Part shown: positions 11,338 through 22,597 of the stretch, piece by piece | Layout of the letters: each line of letters opens with the position of its first letter | How positions within the stretch are numbered: position 1 is the stretch's first letter | NCBI GenBank assembly: GCA_030950085.1 | Contig: JAUZRW010000109.1 | Location: 1-55,344 of the forward strand | DNA length: 55,344 nt | Direction of reading: 5' to 3' | Origin: Anaerolineae bacterium | GTDB lineage: Bacteria > Chloroflexota > Anaerolineae > Aggregatilineales > Phototrophicaceae | Position numbers and translations under genes: made by a program | Notes under the pieces: generated by a model | What the model saw: only the letters and a program-made list of their open reading frames with translations | Database searches by the model: none | Told to the model about the DNA's origin: nothing

Positions 11338-12900
11338 ATGACAAACACCTTGAATCCATACATCCTATTAGGTATCGCATCATCTGCAACGATTGATGAT
11401 ATTCATCGTGCATACAACAATTTAGTACAGCGTATCCAACCCAATACGAATCAATACTCTGCGACAGCACAAGAACAGTTGGAAACGATTACGCAAGCAT
11501 ACAATTTGCTTGTGAGTCCAACACAGCGCCGAAAATATGACACGCAGTCGACATCAACTGATGATGGTAAAAGTGACTTGTCTTTTTCGATGCGAGTTAC
11601 ACCGAGCAAACGTGCGATTATTCCTTTACCAGAAGACCAGATAATCTATTTGTTAGCCGATATAATTGCATCACCTGCAGCACGGAAATTAGAAGAGCGT
11701 GAAGCCCACCTCAACCTCACGCTGGTCATTGACCATAGCAAATCTATGGAAGACGAAAATCGCATGAGCAAGGTTAAGGCGGCAGCACAAACCATCATCA
11801 CAGAATTATCAAGTGATGATGTCATTTCTATCGTTGCCTTTAATGATTGGTCATCAGTTATCATTGAGGCGACGCATGTGCAAGATAAAATGTCGATGCG
11901 TGGTCGTGTGAGTATGATAAAACCTAAAGGTGGCACCGAAATTTACAAAGGTCTAGCAGAGGGTGTCAAGCAGAATCGCAAGTACCTCAAACCATCTATG
12001 ATTAATCATATTATTCTATTGACGGATGGTCGCACCTTTGGCGATGAAGAGCAATGCCTTGACCTTGCGCGACAGGCAGTATCAGATGGTATTACTATCA
12101 GTGCAATGGGGCTTGGCAGTGATTGGAATGATAGATTCCTTGATGAATTGGCTTCCGTTACAGGTGGTACATCTATGTACGTTAAAAGTGTGGCAGATGT
12201 CCCAATATTCTTGAATAGACAAATACGGAGTTTGTCGAACGCATTTGCAGAACGAATGCAGTTATCAGTCATTCCCGAATCCGGTGTCAATCTTGAAATG
12301 GCTTTCCAACTATCGCCGAGTCCGCAACCATTGACTCATGAAAATGGCATTATACGCCTGACGAGTTTACAACCAAAGCGCCCTATTTCAGTATTGCTGC
12401 AATTCCAACTTCCGGCACAACTGGCTGAAGGCACGACATCAGTTGCACGCCTCGTCTCAACAGGGGTGATTATGACACGCAATGCCCTTAAACACGTAGC
12501 CGTTGGCGAATTAGAAGTCGAAATTAGCAAGAATCCAAAACAGACAGAGGGTCCTCCAGCATCCATTATTGATGCACTCAGCAAATTAACATTGTATCAA
12601 ATTCAGGAAAAAGCACAGTTAGCACTAGAAAATGGCGATATTACAAAAGCAACACAGCAACTCCAGTTCTTAGGCACACGCTTGATTGATATGGGCGAAG
12701 TTGAATTGGGTCGCCAAGCTCTCGCAGAAGCCCAGCATATTGCATCAACACGGGCATTCTCCAGTGAGGCAAGCGGTAAAACAATCAAGTATTCTACCCG
12801 TGCCTTGATAGAACCGGGAGGCATGAAGTCTGCAATTACAGCTATGTTTGATAATCATGGCGACAAGCCCACTAATGATGATAACCCTGCGGAAACATAA
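11338..12900 (+). CDS. VWA-domain protein with N-terminal J-like domain
   Basis: 520 residues. Residues 6-68 match a DnaJ J-domain in length and pattern (NPYILLGI, then AYNLLVSPTQRRKYD), but the HPD tripeptide reads QPN (34-36), so Hsp70 stimulation is unlikely. A VWA domain spans about 122-310 with an intact MIDAS DHSKS (Asp 132, Ser 134, Ser 136), KGGTEIYKGL and LLTDGR. The rest is beta-rich, then helical (about 410-480), resembling the post-VWA region of inter-alpha-trypsin-inhibitor/TerY-like proteins. It sits 15 bases after the PP2C gene, so it probably acts as a scaffold or ligand-binding subunit in the same phospho-relay. Confidence 0.85.
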   Translation: MTNTLNPYILLGIASSATIDDIHRAYNNLVQRIQPNTNQYSATAQEQLETITQAYNLLVSPTQRRKYDTQSTSTDDGKSDLSFSMRVTPSKRAIIPLPEDQIIYLLADIIASPAARKLEEREAHLNLTLVIDHSKSMEDENRMSKVKAAAQTIITELSSDDVISIVAFNDWSSVIIEATHVQDKMSMRGRVSMIKPKGGTEIYKGLAEGVKQNRKYLKPSMINHIILLTDGRTFGDEEQCLDLARQAVSDGITISAMGLGSDWNDRFLDELASVTGGTSMYVKSVADVPIFLNRQIRSLSNAFAERMQLSVIPESGVNLEMAFQLSPSPQPLTHENGIIRLTSLQPKRPISVLLQFQLPAQLAEGTTSVARLVSTGVIMTRNALKHVAVGELEVEISKNPKQTEGPPASIIDALSKLTLYQIQEKAQLALENGDITKATQQLQFLGTRLIDMGEVELGRQALAEAQHIASTRAFSSEASGKTIKYSTRALIEPGGMKSAITAMFDNHGDKPTNDDNPAET

Positions 12901-12969
12901 AACAGGGATTCATCATGTGCCGATGGGCGGATTAAGAGCTATAATTAGTAATGGATTATAAGCAATTAC

Positions 12970-13491
12970 TTGAGCAAAAAAATTATGATAACTTGTCCTA
13001 ATTGTAATCATAAGAACCGTGATGGTTTCTTATTTTGTGACAACTGTGGCTATAGCATTACAGATGCTGTAGCTGGTCAAGCAACAATCCCGACGCGCCG
13101 TGTCCCAAGTGACCCTGATGACTCATCAGCAAAAGCCACATGGGGTAGTGCGCGTTTCCGCCAAGGTTCAAGTGTCATCCTCCATATTCATGAGGTCGCT
13201 GATCCTGTAACTGTTGAACCAGCACAACGCATCATCTTCGGACGTTCCGATACCAGTAGCACGTATCTACCAGACGTTGATTTTTCCCCGTATGGTGCGT
13301 TGGAAAAAGGTGTCTCGCGCCAACATGCTGCGCTAGAAATCAACGAGGATACGTTAATGCTACTGGATGTAGGAAGTTCAAACGGTACATTCTTAAACGG
13401 ACAACGTCTCCTACCCAACCAACCTCGTGTTCTACGCGATGGTGATGAAGTAAGATTGGGTAAACTCATTACACATATTTATTTTAAGTGA
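12970..13491 (+). CDS. Zinc ribbon-FHA domain protein
   Basis: 173 residues if the TTG at 12970 is used; an ATG at 12985 removes five residues and neither has a strong ribosome site. A four-Cys ribbon sits at the N-terminus (CPNC at 9-12, CDNC at 23-26). A 50-residue linker leads to a C-terminal FHA domain with IIFGRSD, SRQHAALE and DVGSSNGTFLNGQRL, the conserved phosphothreonine-binding residues. FHA domains read Thr phosphorylation, so this is the likely recognition partner of the upstream kinase. A TATAAT at 12940-12945 could give it an extra promoter. Confidence 0.9.
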   Translation: MSKKIMITCPNCNHKNRDGFLFCDNCGYSITDAVAGQATIPTRRVPSDPDDSSAKATWGSARFRQGSSVILHIHEVADPVTVEPAQRIIFGRSDTSSTYLPDVDFSPYGALEKGVSRQHAALEINEDTLMLLDVGSSNGTFLNGQRLLPNQPRVLRDGDEVRLGKLITHIYFK

Positions 13492-13511
13492 CGTAAGGAC
13501 TGTGGAAATTT

Positions 13512-13757
13512 ATGTACACACTCTTGCTCCATATAGCAGATTCACCCGAACCCGTCAAAGCCGAAGTAGACGAATTGCCTGACCCCAGTGCAAGTTTTCT
13601 TGTTATTAAGAACCCTCGTCTACGAAGTGAAAAAGAAATACGTGGGCTTGAAGACGGCGTAACAATGCTCATTTACCCATGGTGGCGCATCAATTATATT
13701 CAGGTGCTACCAAGTGGTGATGACGAATTAGACTTTCCATTACTCTATCGAGATTAG
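13512..13757 (+). CDS. Small conserved-looking hypothetical protein
   Basis: 81 residues, mixed beta/alpha in character, no cysteine and no membrane segment. It contains ASFLVIKNPRLRSEKEI in the middle and an aromatic stretch YPWWRINYIQVLP that looks like a beta-hairpin. I do not recognise the family. It lies 20 bases after the FHA gene and 12 before the response regulator with good codon structure, so it is very likely real and part of the same operon. Confidence 0.7.
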   Translation: MYTLLLHIADSPEPVKAEVDELPDPSASFLVIKNPRLRSEKEIRGLEDGVTMLIYPWWRINYIQVLPSGDDELDFPLLYRD

Positions 13758-13769
13758 AGCCGAGATATT

Positions 13770-14504
13770 ATGTCTACAAAATTACCGAAAACATCTCAAC
13801 GTAGTTTAACCCGTGTGCTTGTGGTTGATGATGAACCGCGTATGATTGGCTTCATCCGTATGAATCTTGAGTTAGAACAAATTCAAGTCTTTGAGGCACA
13901 CAATGGGCTTGAAGCACTTGATACTATCCGCACACAGTTACCGGATATTGTTCTCCTTGACGTGATGATGCCTGAACTTGATGGCTTTGAAACATTGCGA
14001 ATGTTACGTGAGTTCTCTGACATTCCTGTGATTATGCTGACGGCAAAAGCTGATGAGAATGATATTGTTCATGGGTTGGAATTAGGCGCTGATGATTATG
14101 TCACGAAGCCTTTTGGTCCACGTGAACTCTCTAGCCGCATAAAGGCTGTTCTCCGTCGCCACGAATCTAAAACACCCGAAGAGGCTATTCTCAAAATTGA
14201 CGACCATCTCAGTGTTGATTTCAACCAACGCGAAGTCATTGTTGACGGTAAGCGGGTTAAATTACGCCCCACTGAATATCGTCTACTCTACCATCTTATC
14301 GAAAATTCGGGATGGACTGTTCCTCATGACCAAATTTTGGCAAAAGTGTGGGGTTATGAGTATCGTGATGAGGCACATTATGTTCGTTTGTATGTCAATT
14401 ATCTACGCGAGAAAATCGAAGAAGACCCTGCCAATCCGCGTTATATTTTAACAGAGCGTGGTGTGGGCTACCGTTTTATTGATTTTAAACGTAAAACTGC
14501 CTAA
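13770..14504 (+). CDS. OmpR/PhoB-type response regulator
   Basis: 244 residues. The receiver domain (about 15-130) has the acidic pair Asp 20/Asp 21, phospho-acceptor Asp 64 in [11 protein letters not shown], the Thr of MLTAK and Lys of VTKPFGP. A winged-helix DNA-binding domain (about 145-240) follows with [12 protein letters not shown], the recognition-helix segment, and RGVGYRF. It should activate or repress promoters when phosphorylated. No histidine kinase is nearby. Its place at the end of the Ser/Thr kinase/PP2C/FHA run raises the possibility of cross-talk, though it may pair with a distant kinase. A strong terminator follows. Confidence 0.92.
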
Positions 14505-16799: not shown

Positions 16800-18230
16800 C
16801 TAACGCAATCGTGGTAATACAGTCACAGAGGTAGCGATGCTCGCCAAATCTCGGTCATAGGGCGATTCACCGGGCAACACGACATGGATTTTCATGTTTC
16901 GCTCTTGTAATTGGCGTACATGGTCGAATCGAGGGCGACCTGTATAACCATCCGTCAAGATGATAACCTGTTTCAGATTATCCTTATGCTCCAACATATG
17001 CTGTGTGACACAGAAAATTTGCGTACCGCGAGTGCTATTGACAAGCCCTTTTTTAAGACCTTCCAGCGACAGTTCATCTACTAATGTCGAAAACTGATAG
17101 ATTTTCGCTTTTCCTTGTGCGACATAAGGTGCCAATAAATTGAGCAAATAGGGCAACACATTCGACATTGACCCCGAAACATCGAGATAAACATGCGCCT
17201 TGACCCGACGTTCTGGTACACGCGCTTTGACCTCACCACGTTGAGACCACAATGTTCCCGGCATACCGAGCAATTTACGAGCAGGGTTCAAACGGTCACG
17301 CGGATTAGGCAGAACTCCCATGCCTGTAATGCCCGGGATTGGCAAACGTTCTTTGCGACGATAATCTCCCAATTCCTTGCCTAATGCACGACGTAGCAAA
17401 CGCGAAAAGGCACGACGAACTTCTTGTGTCGCTGAATTCGGGTGAAGTTGCCACGGATTCATATTGTTCGCTTGTCCCGGTGGGGAGAAGTCACTTACAT
17501 CCATTGTCCATTTTTTGACAATACGCCCCATCGCATCTTTCAGGTAGGCACTGGAATAGGCATCCCGACTATCGCTCTCATGGTCGCCGAGTAATACAGG
17601 CACGAGCATTGGCACGCCCCGTTCCTTTTGGTCTTTCTTGATGAGGTCAAGAATCTCATCATAGAACGGCATTGTGGGTCGTCGCGCCCCTTTCGGCGGA
17701 TAAAGTTGCCGTAAAATACGATTTGTGCCTGTTGGACCCATATCCGTTGGGTATTGAGGTTTATCAGGCCACCCAACCGGAGGGCGTAAGAGAAGGTGTG
17801 GGAATTGGTCAGGTGGGTTGATGGCATCAAAGAAACCCATATATTCTGGGCGACTAAACTTCCGCATCAGTCCGGCATTGATAATCGCATCAAAGGCGAT
17901 ATTTTGCGCTTGTGTCACCCGTGGATAAAGGCTGGTATGCGCCAACATCACATGCCATAGTTCGTGCATCACTAGCAGGAAGAGATGCTCATCCCGTTTA
18001 CAATTTTTCTCCACAAATGCTGGGTTAATGAGCAAGCGCGGACGATGTTTACATTCCATGGCTGCTGTTGGGACATCTTTAGTCGTAACAATCCCTGCCA
18101 GCCGTGAAAATGTTTCCATCTCAAATGTAGCAGCTGGCATAGAAGCCATCAAGCGTGACATAATTTTGGATGCTTCATCCAACCGTTTGTAGAGTGGGGG
18201 ACGCTTTTCTTTGGTCATCTTAGTCACCAT
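16800..18230 (-). CDS. Putative metallopeptidase-VWA protein (DUF2201-like)
   Basis: 476 residues (ATG 18230, or an internal ATG four codons later). The N-terminal domain carries an HExxH zinc motif, MHELWHVMLAH (His 89, Glu 90, His 93), preceded by PRLLINPAFVEK. The C-terminal VWA-like domain has the metal-ion motif LDVSGSM (Asp 350, Ser 352, Ser 354) and ILTDGYTG. This two-part architecture is the DUF2201/YcnF-type protein that partners MoxR ATPases. The gene overlaps the Asn-rich protein gene upstream by seven bases and is the last of a three-gene operon. Whether the peptidase site is active is untested. Confidence 0.85.
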   Translation of the reverse strand: MVTKMTKEKRPPLYKRLDEASKIMSRLMASMPAATFEMETFSRLAGIVTTKDVPTAAMECKHRPRLLINPAFVEKNCKRDEHLFLLVMHELWHVMLAHTSLYPRVTQAQNIAFDAIINAGLMRKFSRPEYMGFFDAINPPDQFPHLLLRPPVGWPDKPQYPTDMGPTGTNRILRQLYPPKGARRPTMPFYDEILDLIKKDQKERGVPMLVPVLLGDHESDSRDAYSSAYLKDAMGRIVKKWTMDVSDFSPPGQANNMNPWQLHPNSATQEVRRAFSRLLRRALGKELGDYRRKERLPIPGITGMGVLPNPRDRLNPARKLLGMPGTLWSQRGEVKARVPERRVKAHVYLDVSGSMSNVLPYLLNLLAPYVAQGKAKIYQFSTLVDELSLEGLKKGLVNSTRGTQIFCVTQHMLEHKDNLKQVIILTDGYTGRPRFDHVRQLQERNMKIHVVLPGESPYDRDLASIATSVTVLPRLR

Positions 18231-19033
18231 TTTTCATCAATACACCCTGTTGCACGAGCAAGTGCTACAATTCGTGAATCATCGCAAACAACGGTCTGTG
18301 ACAAAAATCCCGGTTCAAGTGCAAGTGGCGTGTTCGCAACGACCACATTGGCACGAGAGCGAGCGAGGATATTCAGCACAAATGCCAAGTCAATCGCTCG
18401 CAAGCATGTAACATTCGGTTTTTGAATCTTTGACTCCGAATCCAAGCAATCAAGGTCATCATCATCGTCATTATTCTGGTTATTCGCGTCATTCTGATTA
18501 TTGTTTTTGGGTATACTATCGTTCGGATGAACAGGCTGTATGTAGGCTTTCCGCACATCATCATCCCATGGAAAGAGTAGTGCTGCGCCTTCAAATTTAT
18601 AGCCTTTCCACGCTTTATCGAGAACTTTCGTGAGTCGCCCTAATAATTTCTTGTCGGACTGCAATTTCTCGACGACTTTCTCTGGGCTACCGAACTCTAC
18701 TTTTAGCGATGTTCCTAATAGTCGATGGAATGGGTCGCCTAAACCATCTAGTGAAATACGAACTACTGCGTCAGTCATTGGTGCAATCGTCCAATAAATA
18801 GCCTGTTGACCAAAGCGGTTAAAGCGCGACCCGCTGCCAAAACGTGATGAGCTGCTATTTTGGTTGGTCTTGCCCCCAAAGCGCGGTGAATTAGTATTCT
18901 GATTATTAGTCGTGTTGGTCTTGCTCCCAAAACGCGAAGAGCTCTTACCCTGATTATTATTAGGTTTGTTGTTATTATTCGTGCGTGAAAACGGGCTTAC
19001 ACGTTGATTTTGCTGGTCGTCATTATTCGTCAT
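18224..19033 (-). CDS. Unfamiliar Asn/Ser-rich protein with RFG repeats
   Basis: 269 residues. Residues 1-77 are low complexity, rich in Asn, Gln, Ser, Gly and Lys, with RFG tripeptides at 34, 51, 64 and 73 in a loosely repeated unit. A folded part follows (80-170; begins IYWTIAPMTDAVVRISLDGLGDPF). A second Asn/Asp-rich linker ends in a run of Asp. A C-terminal segment (about 205-269) looks alpha/beta. No membrane helix and no known domain recognised. It is overlapped by a base or more on both sides by the MoxR and metallopeptidase-VWA genes, so it should act with them. Confidence 0.75.
   Translation of the reverse strand: MTNNDDQQNQRVSPFSRTNNNNKPNNNQGKSSSRFGSKTNTTNNQNTNSPRFGGKTNQNSSSSRFGSGSRFNRFGQQAIYWTIAPMTDAVVRISLDGLGDPFHRLLGTSLKVEFGSPEKVVEKLQSDKKLLGRLTKVLDKAWKGYKFEGAALLFPWDDDVRKAYIQPVHPNDSIPKNNNQNDANNQNNDDDDDLDCLDSESKIQKPNVTCLRAIDLAFVLNILARSRANVVVANTPLALEPGFLSQTVVCDDSRIVALARATGCIDEKW
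18806..18946 (-). repeat. Degenerate in-frame repeats encoding RFG units
   Basis: Related copies of an Asn/Gln-rich unit with Ser/Pro-Arg-Phe-Gly, followed by Gly/Ser-Lys-Thr-Asn, spaced roughly 40-50 bases apart. This is the repeat region of the Asn-rich protein. Confidence 0.6.
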
Positions 19034-20487
19034 GATAACACCTCTTCGTCCACACCAAATTGTTTCAAATCGTCACGGAATTGGTTGAGAGCATCTTTCC
19101 AATTGTGCTGCCGCCACAATTCAGGATAACCACCTAGCACAAAATTCACTTCTAATTCTGCCAATTTGCCTTCAGTGCGCCGTTTTAGCGCAAAGGGCTT
19201 AATTTCGTTGTACAATTTCATATCGGGTGCTGTTCCTACCATCGTCGTTGTCCGTTGCCGTGGTAATAATACCCGTCCAGCCAATTTTGCTAGGGGCTCC
19301 CATGCCGCCGGCGTAAGATGATGGGAAGCGCGGAAATGCAAGAACATCGCTGTTGCTAGGCTAATCTGGCGCACCTCAGATTCATCAATATTGAGCGCCT
19401 GTGTCACCAGCCGAGACAGGTCTTCATCACTCATCTCTAATTCCTCACCGAGTAAGATACGCTTCAACGCATCAGGCTCTTGCAAAATCTGTCGCCAGAC
19501 TTCATCTTCCATCATAGACGTGATTTCCCATGCTTGCCGATGAATCGCCACAATTGATGCCGGAGACGGCGGTACATCAGTCGCATTTTGCGGCAAGCCA
19601 TAAAGCAGGGCAAGTTCAGCACTATCTTCAAGGGCGACATCCTCACCTTCCAAAACGAGTCGAGTAGCATGAACAGCAATAATCGACTCGACCAACATCC
19701 GCGCTCGGCGAGGGCTTTGCGGCAAACTCGCTCTTTGCAATAAACCCATGACAGAAATCAGATAATCAATCAGCCATTCACCGACTTCTTCTTCAACTTG
19801 TGGAATCCGTTCGATACACGCTTCAATCAATTCAGTCAGCGCGATATTGATTGACTCCATTGTTCCATTCGGTGATGCAGATGCGCGGAGTGTCAACAAG
19901 TTGCGCTGGTCTTCACGGCTCAAATCACGCCAATTTGGGACAGGAATAACGTATGGAAAGCGGTCTGTGAGTGCTGGGTCAAGCGGTTCTGAGCCAAGAT
20001 ACATATCGTTAATCGGTGAATCGAGGTCAGCATTATCAGGTGTTGGTGGATTCATCGCAGCCCACCGATAGCGCAGTTGCTCAAGATTCATTCCAACAAC
20101 TCGCCGTTCGTGGATAATCGGAAACAGTTTATTCTGCAAATCAGGACGACATCTGGAAATTTCATCAAAAAACACAAATTCAGCATCCCAAATTGCGCCC
20201 GGTGTTGTGATAAAGCGCAGACTTTCATTCCCTTCTTCAGGGATAGGAATACCTACAAGGTCATCATAATTGAGTAATGAAGCATTATAATGTCTGAAAG
20301 ACAAACCGAGTGTGTGTGAAAGACGCTCCACAAGCAGCGTTTTAGCTGTACCATGTGGACCAATCAGAAGAACAGGAAAATTGGTTGCGAGGGCTGCTAT
20401 CAAAACAGCATCCAGATGTTGCCAGCCCTGCACTTCTAGCGACGCTGTAAGGCTTGTGCGGTTGAGGACTTCATGTTCGGTCAGCAT
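19030..20487 (-). CDS. MoxR-family AAA+ ATPase
   Basis: 485 residues. Walker A is GPHGTAKT (43-50), Walker B VFFDEISR (105-112). After them come the MoxR pre-sensor stretch MNPPTPDNADLD and the LTDRFPYVIPVP arginine-finger region. The long C-terminal helical part (about 250-485) exceeds simple MoxR (330) and resembles RavA-like lengths. MoxR ATPases remodel partner complexes together with VWA proteins. First gene of the triad, overlapping the Asn-rich gene by four bases (ATGA). No convincing promoter was found upstream. Confidence 0.92.
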   Translation of the reverse strand: MLTEHEVLNRTSLTASLEVQGWQHLDAVLIAALATNFPVLLIGPHGTAKTLLVERLSHTLGLSFRHYNASLLNYDDLVGIPIPEEGNESLRFITTPGAIWDAEFVFFDEISRCRPDLQNKLFPIIHERRVVGMNLEQLRYRWAAMNPPTPDNADLDSPINDMYLGSEPLDPALTDRFPYVIPVPNWRDLSREDQRNLLTLRASASPNGTMESINIALTELIEACIERIPQVEEEVGEWLIDYLISVMGLLQRASLPQSPRRARMLVESIIAVHATRLVLEGEDVALEDSAELALLYGLPQNATDVPPSPASIVAIHRQAWEITSMMEDEVWRQILQEPDALKRILLGEELEMSDEDLSRLVTQALNIDESEVRQISLATAMFLHFRASHHLTPAAWEPLAKLAGRVLLPRQRTTTMVGTAPDMKLYNEIKPFALKRRTEGKLAELEVNFVLGGYPELWRQHNWKDALNQFRDDLKQFGVDEEVLS

Positions 20488-20909: not shown

Positions 20910-20950
20910 AAGAATTAGAAAGAAAAACGAAATCATTGAAAGGCACTATC

Positions 20951-21250
20951 ATGCCAACTTATATCAACATCGAACCGGCATTATTGCGTTGGCAAGCTAA
21001 ACATGGCAAACGCATGACAAATGAAGAACTCGCTAACCGTGCAGGCATTTCCATTGCTGCATTGTATCGTATGAAATCCGGCGAAATGTCGCGTCCTGAC
21101 CTCAGCAAAATTAACGAATTGTGCAAGGTATTGGAATGTGAACCCGGAGAAATCATCAAGCGTGAGAATACACAACCACTCACGCTGAAAGGCAATTTTC
21201 AGGATTTCCCTGATTTTACAGCCGATGAAGATGCCACACAAAATCCATAA
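20951..21250 (+). CDS. Small XRE-family (Cro/C1-type) helix-turn-helix regulator
   Basis: 99 residues from ATG 20951 (GAAAGG seven bases upstream; a TTG five codons earlier is less likely). The HTH reads MTNEELANRAGISIAALYRMKSG, then LSKINELCKVLECEPGEIIK, the pattern of the short Cro/C1 (HTH_26-like) repressors. The C-terminal 30 residues are acidic and probably flexible. It may bind the dyads in its own upstream region. Transcribed alone with its own terminator. Confidence 0.88.
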   Translation: MPTYINIEPALLRWQAKHGKRMTNEELANRAGISIAALYRMKSGEMSRPDLSKINELCKVLECEPGEIIKRENTQPLTLKGNFQDFPDFTADEDATQNP

Positions 21251-21400: not shown

Positions 21401-22597
21401 ATGGCGAGAAAAAAGAGAACAACTATTGAGGATTCTATCAAAGAGATTGATTCTGTTGTGGATGTCGAGGAAACAGGTATAGCAGATGATGAATTAGCTC
21501 TTGGCAATGAGATGGATACACAACCCGCCTCACCTGTTGGAGATGTTAACGAGACCATTCCTGCCGATACCACTAATAAATCAATAGATTCCGAAGTTAT
21601 TACAGATACCGCATCTATTATGGAATCTACAGTAGATGATATTGACAAAGAAACTGTAGAATCTACAAATACTATTGAAGTGGGCGCAAATGATGTTTCA
21701 ACAGGCGATATAGAAGTTACAGAATCTGTTTCTAATTCAATACTTACTGAAGTTTCATCAGCAACAGGTGAGGATACAGAAATCGTTGCAGATAACGTAA
21801 CCGCCCTGTCATCTACATCAGACAATCCCGTCACGACAAACGGCACTGCCACAACCACTCATTCTAGTCCATCTACTCATCCAGTTTATCCAGATTCACA
21901 ATCGATTGGGGCAAATACTATGGCTTCAAACTCTACAGATAAAACATCTAGCAGCTTTGGCGATTATCAGATTATGCCAGAATCTTCTTGGCCTCCGCCC
22001 ATGTTCGTGAAAAAGAACATTACGCCACAAGAACGTTATTACTTAGAAAATCGCTGGCATAGTCAATGGCGTTTCTTCGATACTAAAGCGAGTAATAGTA
22101 AAAGCCAATATTTTTGGTTACAACGCATTGTTGTGATTGGTTCAGTTACCGTACCTGTACTCGTCAGTTTAGACCCTGATATCATTCGTGGGCTTATCAA
22201 CTTTATTCCGCTAGTGACCCTCACAGTAGACCAAGCGCGACTGCTCATTGACATTACAACTGTGTTGCTCAGTTTAGCAGTTGCTATTTCAGCAGGTCTT
22301 GAAAGCCTCAATAAATATGGCGATAATTGGGGTTCATATCGTCAGGCAGCAGAAGAGTTACAGGCTGAAAAATCATTCTATGATGTGGATGGGGGGCGTT
22401 ATGCCAATAACCCTGATGCTTTCTCGCGCTTTGTTGAACGCACAGAAGAAATTATCGCACAGCAAAATGGGCGTTTCATCGCATCGGTTGAGAAACAGAC
22501 ACAAGAATCCGAAAAACGGGGCGAAGAATTTCTCGGTTTGGATGAAGATGAAACCACCCAAGAAGACCCCGTGTATCCAGAAACATCTGCTGGCTAG
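21401..22597 (+). CDS. DUF4231 (SLATT-like) two-helix membrane protein with acidic N-terminal tail
   Basis: 398 residues. The first 190 are disordered, rich in Asp, Glu, Ser, Thr and Val, with few aromatics. The C-terminal part from about 205 matches DUF4231: YYLENRWHSQWRFFDTKA, two hydrophobic helices (about 240-260 and 285-305), then GDNWGSYRQAAEELQAEK and ERTEEIIAQQ. The family is part of the SLATT group of two-helix proteins, proposed to form pores or sensors in conflict systems, though many are stand-alone. No nucleotide cyclase or effector partner is adjacent. A possible -10 TATAAC lies at 21373. The strong terminator after it suggests a single-gene unit. Confidence 0.82.
   Translation: MARKKRTTIEDSIKEIDSVVDVEETGIADDELALGNEMDTQPASPVGDVNETIPADTTNKSIDSEVITDTASIMESTVDDIDKETVESTNTIEVGANDVSTGDIEVTESVSNSILTEVSSATGEDTEIVADNVTALSSTSDNPVTTNGTATTTHSSPSTHPVYPDSQSIGANTMASNSTDKTSSSFGDYQIMPESSWPPPMFVKKNITPQERYYLENRWHSQWRFFDTKASNSKSQYFWLQRIVVIGSVTVPVLVSLDPDIIRGLINFIPLVTLTVDQARLLIDITTVLLSLAVAISAGLESLNKYGDNWGSYRQAAEELQAEKSFYDVDGGRYANNPDAFSRFVERTEEIIAQQNGRFIASVEKQTQESEKRGEEFLGLDEDETTQEDPVYPETSAG

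What the first reader, a model, noticed from the sequence alone, without database searches (positions are those of the whole stretch)
16800..20487. MoxR / Asn-rich protein / metallopeptidase-VWA triad
Three overlapping genes: an AAA+ MoxR with a long C-terminal extension, an unfamiliar Asn/Ser-rich protein, and a protein with both HExxH and a VWA MIDAS. MoxR-VWA pairs are established remodelling systems, but the inserted middle gene and the intact peptidase-like motif make this a possibly undescribed variant, for example an ATPase-gated protease.
Basis: partly seen in the sequence, partly recalled or inferred. Interest (0 to 1): 0.55.

Follow-up and report, generated by a model that had tools for sequence, protein, structure and literature searches.

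The report
Conserved AAA+–adaptor–metallopeptidase operon
Three overlapping genes encode what looks like one conserved molecular machine (a ring motor, a fast-evolving small partner and a protein joining a zinc-peptidase-like part to a metal-dependent binding part), which in many other bacteria carries a fourth gene, an altered relative of the enzyme that makes S-adenosylmethionine.

Summary
In detail: three overlapping minus-strand genes, MoxR AAA+ (19030-20487), a 269-aa variable protein (18224-19033) and an HExxH-VWA protein (16800-18230). Neither refutation test refutes it. A middle ORF lies in all 70 of 80 loci (13 phyla by record title) that hold MoxR upstream; 62 of 71 middle proteins link by sequence. 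In 61 relatives the three genes share the same 10 genomes, plus one MoxR at a contig edge. HExxH is intact in 79 of 79 readable copies. The MoxR + peptidase-VWA pair is already published for jumbo phages. My searches did not find the wider system in print: 49 of 74 classifiable loci have a diverged MetK-like gene next door, which keeps most ATP/phosphate residues but not methionine-contacting E55 and Q98 (0 of 46 each). Its presence goes with a short motif of the middle protein (38 both, 0 motif alone; only 3 independent changes, p 0.25). The window's Anaerolineae branch lacks the fourth gene. Most likely: a MoxR-VWA remodelling machine with a dedicated adaptor or client and a peptidase-like head, which in fuller form acts on the MetK-like enzyme. 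Biochemistry is untested.

The parts
19030..20487 (-). MoxR-type AAA+ ATPase, 485 aa (P0003), AAA+ domain plus about 300-aa C-terminal region
   Evidence: AAA_5 1.6e-14, bpMoxR 28.5 bits; a homologue lies upstream on the same strand in 70 of 80 loci
20338..20361 (-). Walker A GPHGTAKT, residues 43-50
   Evidence: read; motif name recalled
18224..19033 (-). middle gene, 269-aa fast-evolving protein (P0002), adaptor or client
   Evidence: model core mostly pLDDT 82-98 per 10-residue block
18809..19033 (-). Asn/Ser-rich, low-confidence N-terminal tail of the middle protein, residues 1-75
18539..18796 (-). structured core part 1 of the middle protein (residues 80-165)
18227..18421 (-). structured core part 2 of the middle protein (residues 205-269; RAxDxxxVxNxLxRxR ... 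DDxR)
16800..18230 (-). HExxH-VWA protein, 476 aa (P0001)
17877..17966 (-). peptidase-like motif H89-E90-x-x-H93-x4-H98 ... N110-x3-D114-x3-N118
   Evidence: invariant in the 70 rows of A4; HExxH in 79 of 79 readable of 81 rows
17169..17183 (-). VWA MIDAS DxSxS, residues 350-354 (with T403 at 17022-17024 and D427 at 16950-16952)
   Evidence: D350, S352, S354 77 of 77, T403 75 of 76 (Asn in L081), D427 76 of 76; VWA fold, Rea1 MIDAS domain first Foldseek row
20936..21250 (+). divergent Cro/C1-type HTH gene upstream of MoxR, possible regulator (window's sub-branch only)
   Evidence: HTH_26 2.7e-14; relatives only in L023/L032, L027/L040 and L033 among the loci searched

Best explanation
The three genes make one machine. 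A MoxR AAA+ ring uses ATP to work through a cochaperone (the HExxH-VWA protein) whose VWA MIDAS would grip an acidic residue of a partner, while its zincin-like head cuts or binds that partner. The middle protein is the machine's dedicated, fast-evolving adaptor or client, probably what MoxR and the HExxH-VWA protein act on or through. In the fuller form found in most of the other loci, the middle protein also carries an N-terminal L[HN]N[MSI][SG]-type motif that I infer engages a fourth subunit, an altered MetK-like enzyme keeping most of the ATP/triphosphate residues but not the canonical methionine contacts; the machine would activate, release or mature it. The window's branch lacks the MetK-like gene and the motif and keeps the core. 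Shown: gene order, co-occurrence, conserved residues, VWA fold. Inferred: physical complex, proteolysis, client role, MetK-like control.
For: A middle ORF between MoxR and HExxH-VWA in 70 of 70 loci with an upstream MoxR gene (of 80; 8 others start within about 650 nt of the contig start, and the genomes of L034 and L036 keep MoxR+middle together on another contig). These gaps are open in one frame over 95% of their length on average, against 63% in dinucleotide shuffles; single loci stand out in 34 of 70. P0001 and P0002 are in the same 10 of 61 relatives; P0003 in those plus G328, at a contig edge. The middle proteins link by 62 of 71 and are the least conserved: lower identity than HExxH-VWA in 348 and than MoxR in 350 of 350 sampled locus pairs. 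Peptidase-type and MIDAS residues near-invariant. VWA fold: Rea1 MIDAS rank 1, chains of NorQD complexes ranks 10 and 14 (chain identity not checked, TM 0.23-0.25). MetK-like gene next door in 49 of 74 classifiable loci, estimated median 24 nt after the HExxH-VWA gene. Precedent for MoxR-VWA remodelling: NorQD (PMC9976466 passages; PMC13036017 abstract).
Against: No biochemistry. HExxH may bind metal without cutting. Which protein is the client is a guess. The window's branch lives without MetK-like, so that gene is not essential to the core. The middle protein's model has no solved-structure match, so its role has no fold-based support. The VWA resembles VWAs in general (TFIIH, integrin and collagen rows lead), not MoxR partners alone. 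The motif/MetK link rests on 3 independent changes of MetK (sign test p 0.25), the motif itself needs 6 changes on the same tree, 5 loci have MetK-like without the motif, and the pattern was written after seeing the sequences.
Confidence: 0.5

Rival explanations
1. A peptide-processing machine: the HExxH-VWA protein is a true protease, MoxR feeds it, and the middle protein is the pro-peptide substrate, cut near its conserved N-terminal motif.
For: Invariant HExxHxxxxH...N-x3-D-x3-N; rapidly diverging partner with one short conserved motif, like the small rapidly diverging proteins (several called FxSxx-COOH) that PMC7159879 ties to a zincin-like peptidase (passages).
Against: The window's branch lacks the motif but keeps the peptidase residues. 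The middle protein's core is structured and conserved at its C-terminal end, unusual for a discarded pro-region. No cleavage shown.
Confidence: 0.2
2. A biological-conflict (anti-phage) system of the MoxR-vWA ternary type: the middle protein is the sensor and an exchangeable effector sits downstream (MetK-like, or a DNA methyltransferase plus PLD-SNF2 helicase).
For: In 3 of the 4 non-Chloroflexota loci without MetK-like (L063, L085, L090) an Eco57I/type-IIG-like methyltransferase lies 29, 117 and 1093 nt downstream on the same strand, and a shared gene follows, PLD-SNF2 helicase-like in L085 and L090. Spread over 13 phyla but patchy within the window's family; least conservation in the third component; a SLATT gene near the window's copy.
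Against: No PADLOC model matches the core: one search gives three weak rows for MoxR and none for the other two, none for four L083 proteins. The Pfam scan of 102 neighbouring ORFs (taken from loci L051 to L088, part of 260 called) gave no dominant defence family and had no control set. The window's neighbourhood is plain synteny in its near relatives. VMAP, iSTAND and beta-propeller components were not seen, but were not searched for with their own profiles.
Confidence: 0.2
3. An ordinary MoxR-VWA chaperone for one housekeeping complex; the MetK-like gene is merely a client or bystander.
For: Known MoxR-VWA pairs act this way: NorQD (PMC9976466 passages); RavA-ViaA and CbbQO seen only in the listing and abstract starts.
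Against: Outside the four genes, neighbours shared by non-Anaerolineae loci come in sets of at most 5 loci, so no common client operon is visible except MetK-like; presence is patchy even in one family (10 of 37 genomes of family f1).
Confidence: 0.1

Closest known systems
Jumbo-phage MoxR AAA+ / metallopeptidase-vWA pair (PMC7824862, passages read)
   Same: MoxR plus a vWA protein with N-terminal metallopeptidase; viral Foldseek rows 1 and 8 are named metallopeptidases and their alignments span the length (TM 0.26, rmsd 17-20, so domains do not superpose as one body); viral loci L112 and L113 hold both genes
   Different: L112 has the order peptidase-VWA then MoxR with no gene between; no hit of the middle or MetK-like profiles in L112 or L113; the authors propose virion assembly
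DUF2201_N / DUF2201 (Pfam PF13203 / PF09967)
   Same: Same motif HExxHxxxxH ... N-x-A-x-D-x-x-x-N as in the above-cut-off member L125; 12 of 13 family members hit PF13203 at E up to 0.01
   Different: The window's own protein is below the PF13203 cut-off (21.3 against 23.2 bits); dedicated third gene between MoxR and the peptidase-VWA
MoxR-vWA ternary conflict systems (PMC7159879, passages read)
   Same: MoxR, vWA and a rapidly evolving third component; P0003 passes the bpMoxR model (28.5 against 27 bits)
   Different: Peptidase domain is N-terminal and invariant rather than a swapped C-terminal effector; the third component matches no Pfam family at the cut-off and no solved fold; no beta-propeller, VMAP or iSTAND seen
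NorQ/NorD (PMC9976466 passages; PMC13036017 abstract)
   Same: MoxR + VWA with MIDAS; chains of NorQD complexes among Foldseek rows
   Different: The words peptidase and HEXXH do not occur in the main text of PMC9976466; client is nitric oxide reductase in the norCBQDEF operon
MetK, methionine adenosyltransferase (TIGR01034)
   Same: Fold family and most ATP/triphosphate residues of the neighbouring fourth gene in other phyla
   Different: 134-160 bits against a cut-off of 309.4 in the 4 copies scanned; separate branch from 7 canonical MetKs (SH-aLRT 100); E55 and Q98 kept in 0 of 46 each

Membership tests
DUF2201-type MoxR-partnered HExxH-VWA proteins | HExxH with downstream H and N-x3-D-x3-N helix | tested here: met
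   invariant in A4 (70 rows); same motif in L125
DUF2201-type MoxR-partnered HExxH-VWA proteins | C-terminal VWA domain with complete MIDAS | tested here: met
   (one exception, L081 T403N); fold rows, Z up to 11.9 over residues 341-476
DUF2201-type MoxR-partnered HExxH-VWA proteins | Pfam PF13203 gathering score | tested here: not met
   21.3 against 23.2 bits; 22.6
Jumbo-phage MoxR / metallopeptidase-vWA pair | two-gene pair without third component | tested here: not met
   middle ORF in 70 of 70 loci with upstream MoxR
MoxR-vWA ternary conflict systems | MoxR and vWA genes in one operon with a third component | tested here: met
MoxR-vWA ternary conflict systems | third component is VMAP, iSTAND or beta-propeller | tested here: inconclusive
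   only a weak Nucleoporin_FG row for the middle protein at E up to 1 in Pfam; no solved-fold match; no VMAP or iSTAND profile was run
MoxR-vWA ternary conflict systems | variable exchanged effectors | tested here: inconclusive
   MetK-like in 49 loci, methyltransferase cassette in 3
Known anti-phage systems (PADLOC) | a matching core model | tested here: not met
   three weak rows for P0003 (best E 0.00098), none for P0001 and P0002; none for four L083 proteins
MetK (SAM synthase), for the fourth gene | residues H14, D16, K165, D238, K245, K265, D271 (roles of several recalled) | tested here: met
   48/48, 48/48, 47/47, 47/47, 47/47, 45/46, 44/45 of readable copies
MetK (SAM synthase), for the fourth gene | SAM-contacting E55 and Q98; equivalog cut-off | tested here: not met
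   0 of 46 and 0 of 46 (E55 the same and Q98 still never Gln in three further alignments); 134-160 bits against 309.4 in 4 copies
Active zinc peptidase | metal-dependent peptide hydrolysis | not testable with these tools
   sequence and predicted fold only

The most novel reading that the evidence does not exclude
The full four-gene operon is an undescribed bacterial system: an AAA+/VWA/zincin machine with a dedicated variable adaptor that controls a MetK-fold adenosyltransferase with a new acceptor in place of free methionine (a peptide, possibly the adaptor's N-terminal motif, or a small molecule used as a signal). The core takes other effectors in some lineages (N6-methyltransferase plus PLD-SNF2 helicase), and the window shows a stripped core whose effector is unlinked or lost.
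Probability: 0.2. Interest if true: 0.85.

Novelty: new variant of a known kind. Interest (0 to 1): 0.6.

Why it matters
I found no paper that assigns a bacterial job to MoxR-VWA machines with a peptidase domain. A widespread link to a diverged S-adenosylmethionine synthetase gives them a concrete enzyme partner to test, and suggests the MetK fold may have a non-canonical acceptor. The natural three-gene versions, such as the window's, serve as a built-in control that separates the core from the MetK-like output.

Tried and rejected
Reading the Asn-rich tail as the functional feature: rejected, Asn is high in the window and in L033 but 1.4-8.9% in eight other members looked at, and the tail is poorly conserved.

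Middle gene as spurious or lineage-specific ORF: rejected mainly by homology. An open gap alone is weak evidence in high-GC DNA: at most 3 of 60 shuffles reach the observed open length in only 34 of 70 loci. BLASTP E-values refer to a set of only 71 sequences. The first phylum-wide search with P0002 found only the window's own genome (1 of 301), because that sample held few carriers (5 of 301 by P0001) and the sequence diverges fast. Start codons of 39 of 70 middle ORFs were set by my own rule to lie near the MoxR end, so '69 of 70 within 40 nt' is partly by construction and is not used as evidence.

No MoxR upstream in L034 and L036: explained, MoxR and middle gene lie together on another contig.

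Met of the HNMS motif as a strictly conserved adenosylation target: weakened, the position is Met, Ser, Ile, Val or Tyr.

Fold of the middle protein: Foldseek gave no match at E up to 0.001 (best 5.6), VIA-align none at Z 2 or more among 22 chains, profile search best E 0.24. VIA rows for the HExxH-VWA model cover mainly residues 340-476; the peptidase half was not searched alone, so no fold claim is made for it.

Plasmids and sequenced phages: no tblastn match to P0001. Neighbour enrichment: 102 of 260 called ORFs scanned, no dominant family, no control set.

Dropped rows: L076 (two fragments), L101, L103, L104, L106, L107, L110 (truncated) left out of the HExxH-VWA tree and of A4; L036, L043, L081 (which has T403N) and L099 were also left out of A4; L049, L052, L054, L056, L102 left out of the MetK tree. 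In one search the wrong frame was first picked for L056; corrected. L101 and L107 are two contigs of one genome holding parts of one gene; L079 and L110 also share a genome; some loci are near-copies (L058/L059, L073/L074/L077). The scan returned 80 loci, equal to the cap, so totals are lower bounds. Phyla are read from record titles of MAGs and may be misnamed.
Full report
WHAT IS THERE. Three overlapping minus-strand genes occupy 16800-20487 exactly as reported. P0003 is a MoxR-type AAA+ ATPase, P0002 a 269-aa protein with no known family, P0001 an HExxH protein with a C-terminal VWA. The genome is Chloroflexota-like: the closest named relatives are Anaerolineae MAGs. It holds one copy of P0001, with no second DUF2201_N match at E up to 1.

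ARE THE THREE LINKED? Among 61 relatives P0001 and P0002 are found in the same 10 genomes, all in the window's family; P0003 in those 10 plus one fragmented genome (G328) where its downstream end lies 138 bases from a contig end. All 9 relatives fetched carry the three genes in the same order. In the wider phylum sample P0001 is found in 5 of 301 genomes, the window's own included. A scan of 84,980 species genomes returned 80 loci, equal to the cap, in 13 phyla by record title. In 70 a MoxR gene lies upstream on the same strand, and all 70 have an ORF in the gap. Of the 10 others, 8 begin within about 650 nt of the contig start and cannot be judged; the genomes of 2 (L034, L036) have MoxR and middle gene together on another contig.

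THE MIDDLE FAMILY. A gap of this size can hold an ORF by chance. The gaps are open in one frame over 95% of their length on average against 63% after dinucleotide shuffling, but taken singly only 34 of 70 stand out (at most 3 of 60 shuffles as long). Homology carries the claim: 62 of 71 middle proteins fall into one cluster by BLASTP at E up to 1e-3 (in a set of 71; single linkage); three more join by profile comparison at 90% and one (L103) at 83%. The remaining five (L097, L098, L106, L108, L105) are placed only by position and motif. The family is the least conserved of the three: over 350 locus pairs sampled from 57 loci its identity is below the HExxH-VWA protein's in 348 and below MoxR's in 350. 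The Asn-rich tail is a low-confidence, variable region; the core is predicted with high confidence (131 residues at pLDDT 90 or more) and has no match among solved folds.

THE HExxH-VWA PROTEIN. H89, E90, H93, H98, N110, D114, N118 are invariant in the 70 rows of A4. In 81 rows HExxH was readable and intact in 79 of 79; MIDAS T403 is Asn in one of 76 (L081). The model (pLDDT 87.6) has HExxH in a helix (80-95) and N110/D114/N118 in the next long one (107-124), consistent with a zincin-type site, though coordinates were not measurable. Foldseek puts the VWA next to the Rea1 MIDAS domain (E 2.5e-5) and, lower, chains of NorQD complexes; on re-alignment general VWA domains lead, Z up to 11.9. Viral rows that align over the length include two named metallopeptidases, at low TM. 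So this is a bacterial branch of the DUF2201-type family, although the window's own protein misses the Pfam cut-off (21.3 against 23.2 bits).

THE FOURTH GENE. Clustering of neighbouring ORFs showed a MetK-like gene directly downstream. It is present in 49 of 80 loci (L102's a fragment), absent in 25 with at least 900 nt of sequence, and not judgeable in 6. Its domain starts an estimated median 24 nt after the HExxH-VWA gene, range -5 to 296. Of the 25 without it, 21 are Chloroflexota of the window's branch and 4 are L063, L069, L085, L090. In 25 whole genomes checked, all 10 without the operon copy, the window's included, have a single canonical-scoring MetK. Of the 15 with it, 14 have a diverged, low-scoring hit (35-89 bits) besides a canonical one; the exception is L102's genome, with two canonical hits. 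L060's genome has two diverged hits, L111's two canonical ones. The operon copies form one side of a branch against 7 canonical MetKs (support 100, quick tree, 44 operon rows).

ITS ACTIVE SITE. E55 is kept in 0 of 46 (Arg 41, Cys 3, Tyr 2) and Q98 in 0 of 46, in four alignment methods (0 of 47 for Q98 in one); R244 is Lys in 41 of 47. Of the eight E. coli residues that contact SAM in the PMC8727953 figure legend, H14, D163, F230 and D238 are kept and E55, Q98, I102 and R229 are mostly or wholly changed; the last three lie in poorly conserved stretches, so their columns are less sure. The human equivalents Glu70 and Gln113 bind the methionine main chain, with Asp258 of the partner subunit (PMC6850014, passages); that E55/Q98 equal Glu70/Gln113 is my numbering. 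Against a changed acceptor: human Q113A keeps 75.6% activity (PMC6850014), archaeal MATs have other active-site residues yet make SAM (PMC8727953), and one of my 6 canonical controls itself reads Glu at K245 and one Asn at R229. So it is a hypothesis.

MOTIF AND METK GO TOGETHER. With a pattern written after inspection, 38 loci have both MetK-like gene and N-terminal motif, 5 have MetK-like without motif (L054, L056, L057, L092, L095), 21 have neither, 0 have motif alone (64 classifiable of 80). On the HExxH-VWA tree MetK needs 3 changes and the motif 6; over the 3 independent pairs the motif goes the same way in 2.6 on average, and p 0.25 cannot be lower with so few. The Anaerolineae branch is joined with MetK-bearing Myxococcota, Acidobacteriota and Planctomycetota rows in a 27-row group (support 94, unstarred) inside a starred 30-row group. 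Loss or unlinking of MetK-like in the window's branch is thus the simplest reading, though the tree is unrooted.

OTHER MODULES. In L063, L085 and L090 a 1167-1357-aa Eco57I/type-IIG-like methyltransferase lies 29, 117 and 1093 nt after the HExxH-VWA gene, followed by a shared protein; in L085 and L090 that one is PLD-SNF2 helicase-like. That raises a defence or DNA-modification role as a rival, but PADLOC has no core match.

WHAT IS KNOWN. The MoxR plus metallopeptidase-vWA pair was reported for jumbo phages with a virion-assembly proposal (PMC7824862, passages). MoxR-vWA ternary systems with other third components are described in PMC7159879 (passages), and the BREX paper PMC12839542 mentions them (passage). 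My searches for DUF2201; MoxR with metallopeptidase, von Willebrand and AAA+; MoxR with metK and VWA; MoxR with S-adenosylmethionine synthetase, operon and metalloprotease; MoxR with defence terms; and MetK-paralogue terms listed no paper that by title or abstract start describes the middle family or the MetK-like link. Most listings were cut (10-25 rows shown of up to 160 papers), the library holds open-licence papers only, and most listed papers were not opened.

VERDICT. It is a real, conserved three-component system, a new variant of the MoxR-VWA kind, whose fuller four-gene form with a diverged MetK is the surprising part. Mechanism is inferred.

Noticed in passing
L063, L085, L090 downstream of the HExxH-VWA gene: Type-IIG/Eco57I-like methyltransferase, then a shared protein that is PLD-SNF2 helicase-like in L085 and L090, where other loci have MetK-like.
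   Followed up: partly
window 21401-22597 (+): DUF4231/SLATT_1 protein near the divergent HTH gene; syntenic in L027/L040 and L033.
   Followed up: partly
window 11338-14504 (+): DnaJ-VWA protein, zinc-ribbon FHA protein and response regulator in a row; same genes near the operon in L027/L040 and L033.
   Followed up: partly
L049, L062, L069, L082, L100 upstream of MoxR: Small ORF (70-125 aa as called) with a shared 'NHHLWNNNGT...RVRRSLGT'-like stretch, weakly DUF6538-like in the two scanned, in front of the operon.
   Followed up: partly
L059 1732-2892; L073 11394-12653 (-); L074 15921-17228 (-): A second, DUF2201-like gene a few kb from the four-gene operon.
   Followed up: no
L112 5794-8894; L113 4824-7053: Viral contigs with peptidase-VWA and MoxR genes; L113 also has several small Gly-rich ORFs between and after them.
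   Followed up: no
L060 genome (G366): Two diverged MetK-like hits besides the canonical one.
   Followed up: no
L054, L056, L057 (Actinomycetota): Short middle proteins (125-136 aa) that keep a PRT/ART stretch but not the HN[MS][SG] motif although MetK-like is present.
   Followed up: no
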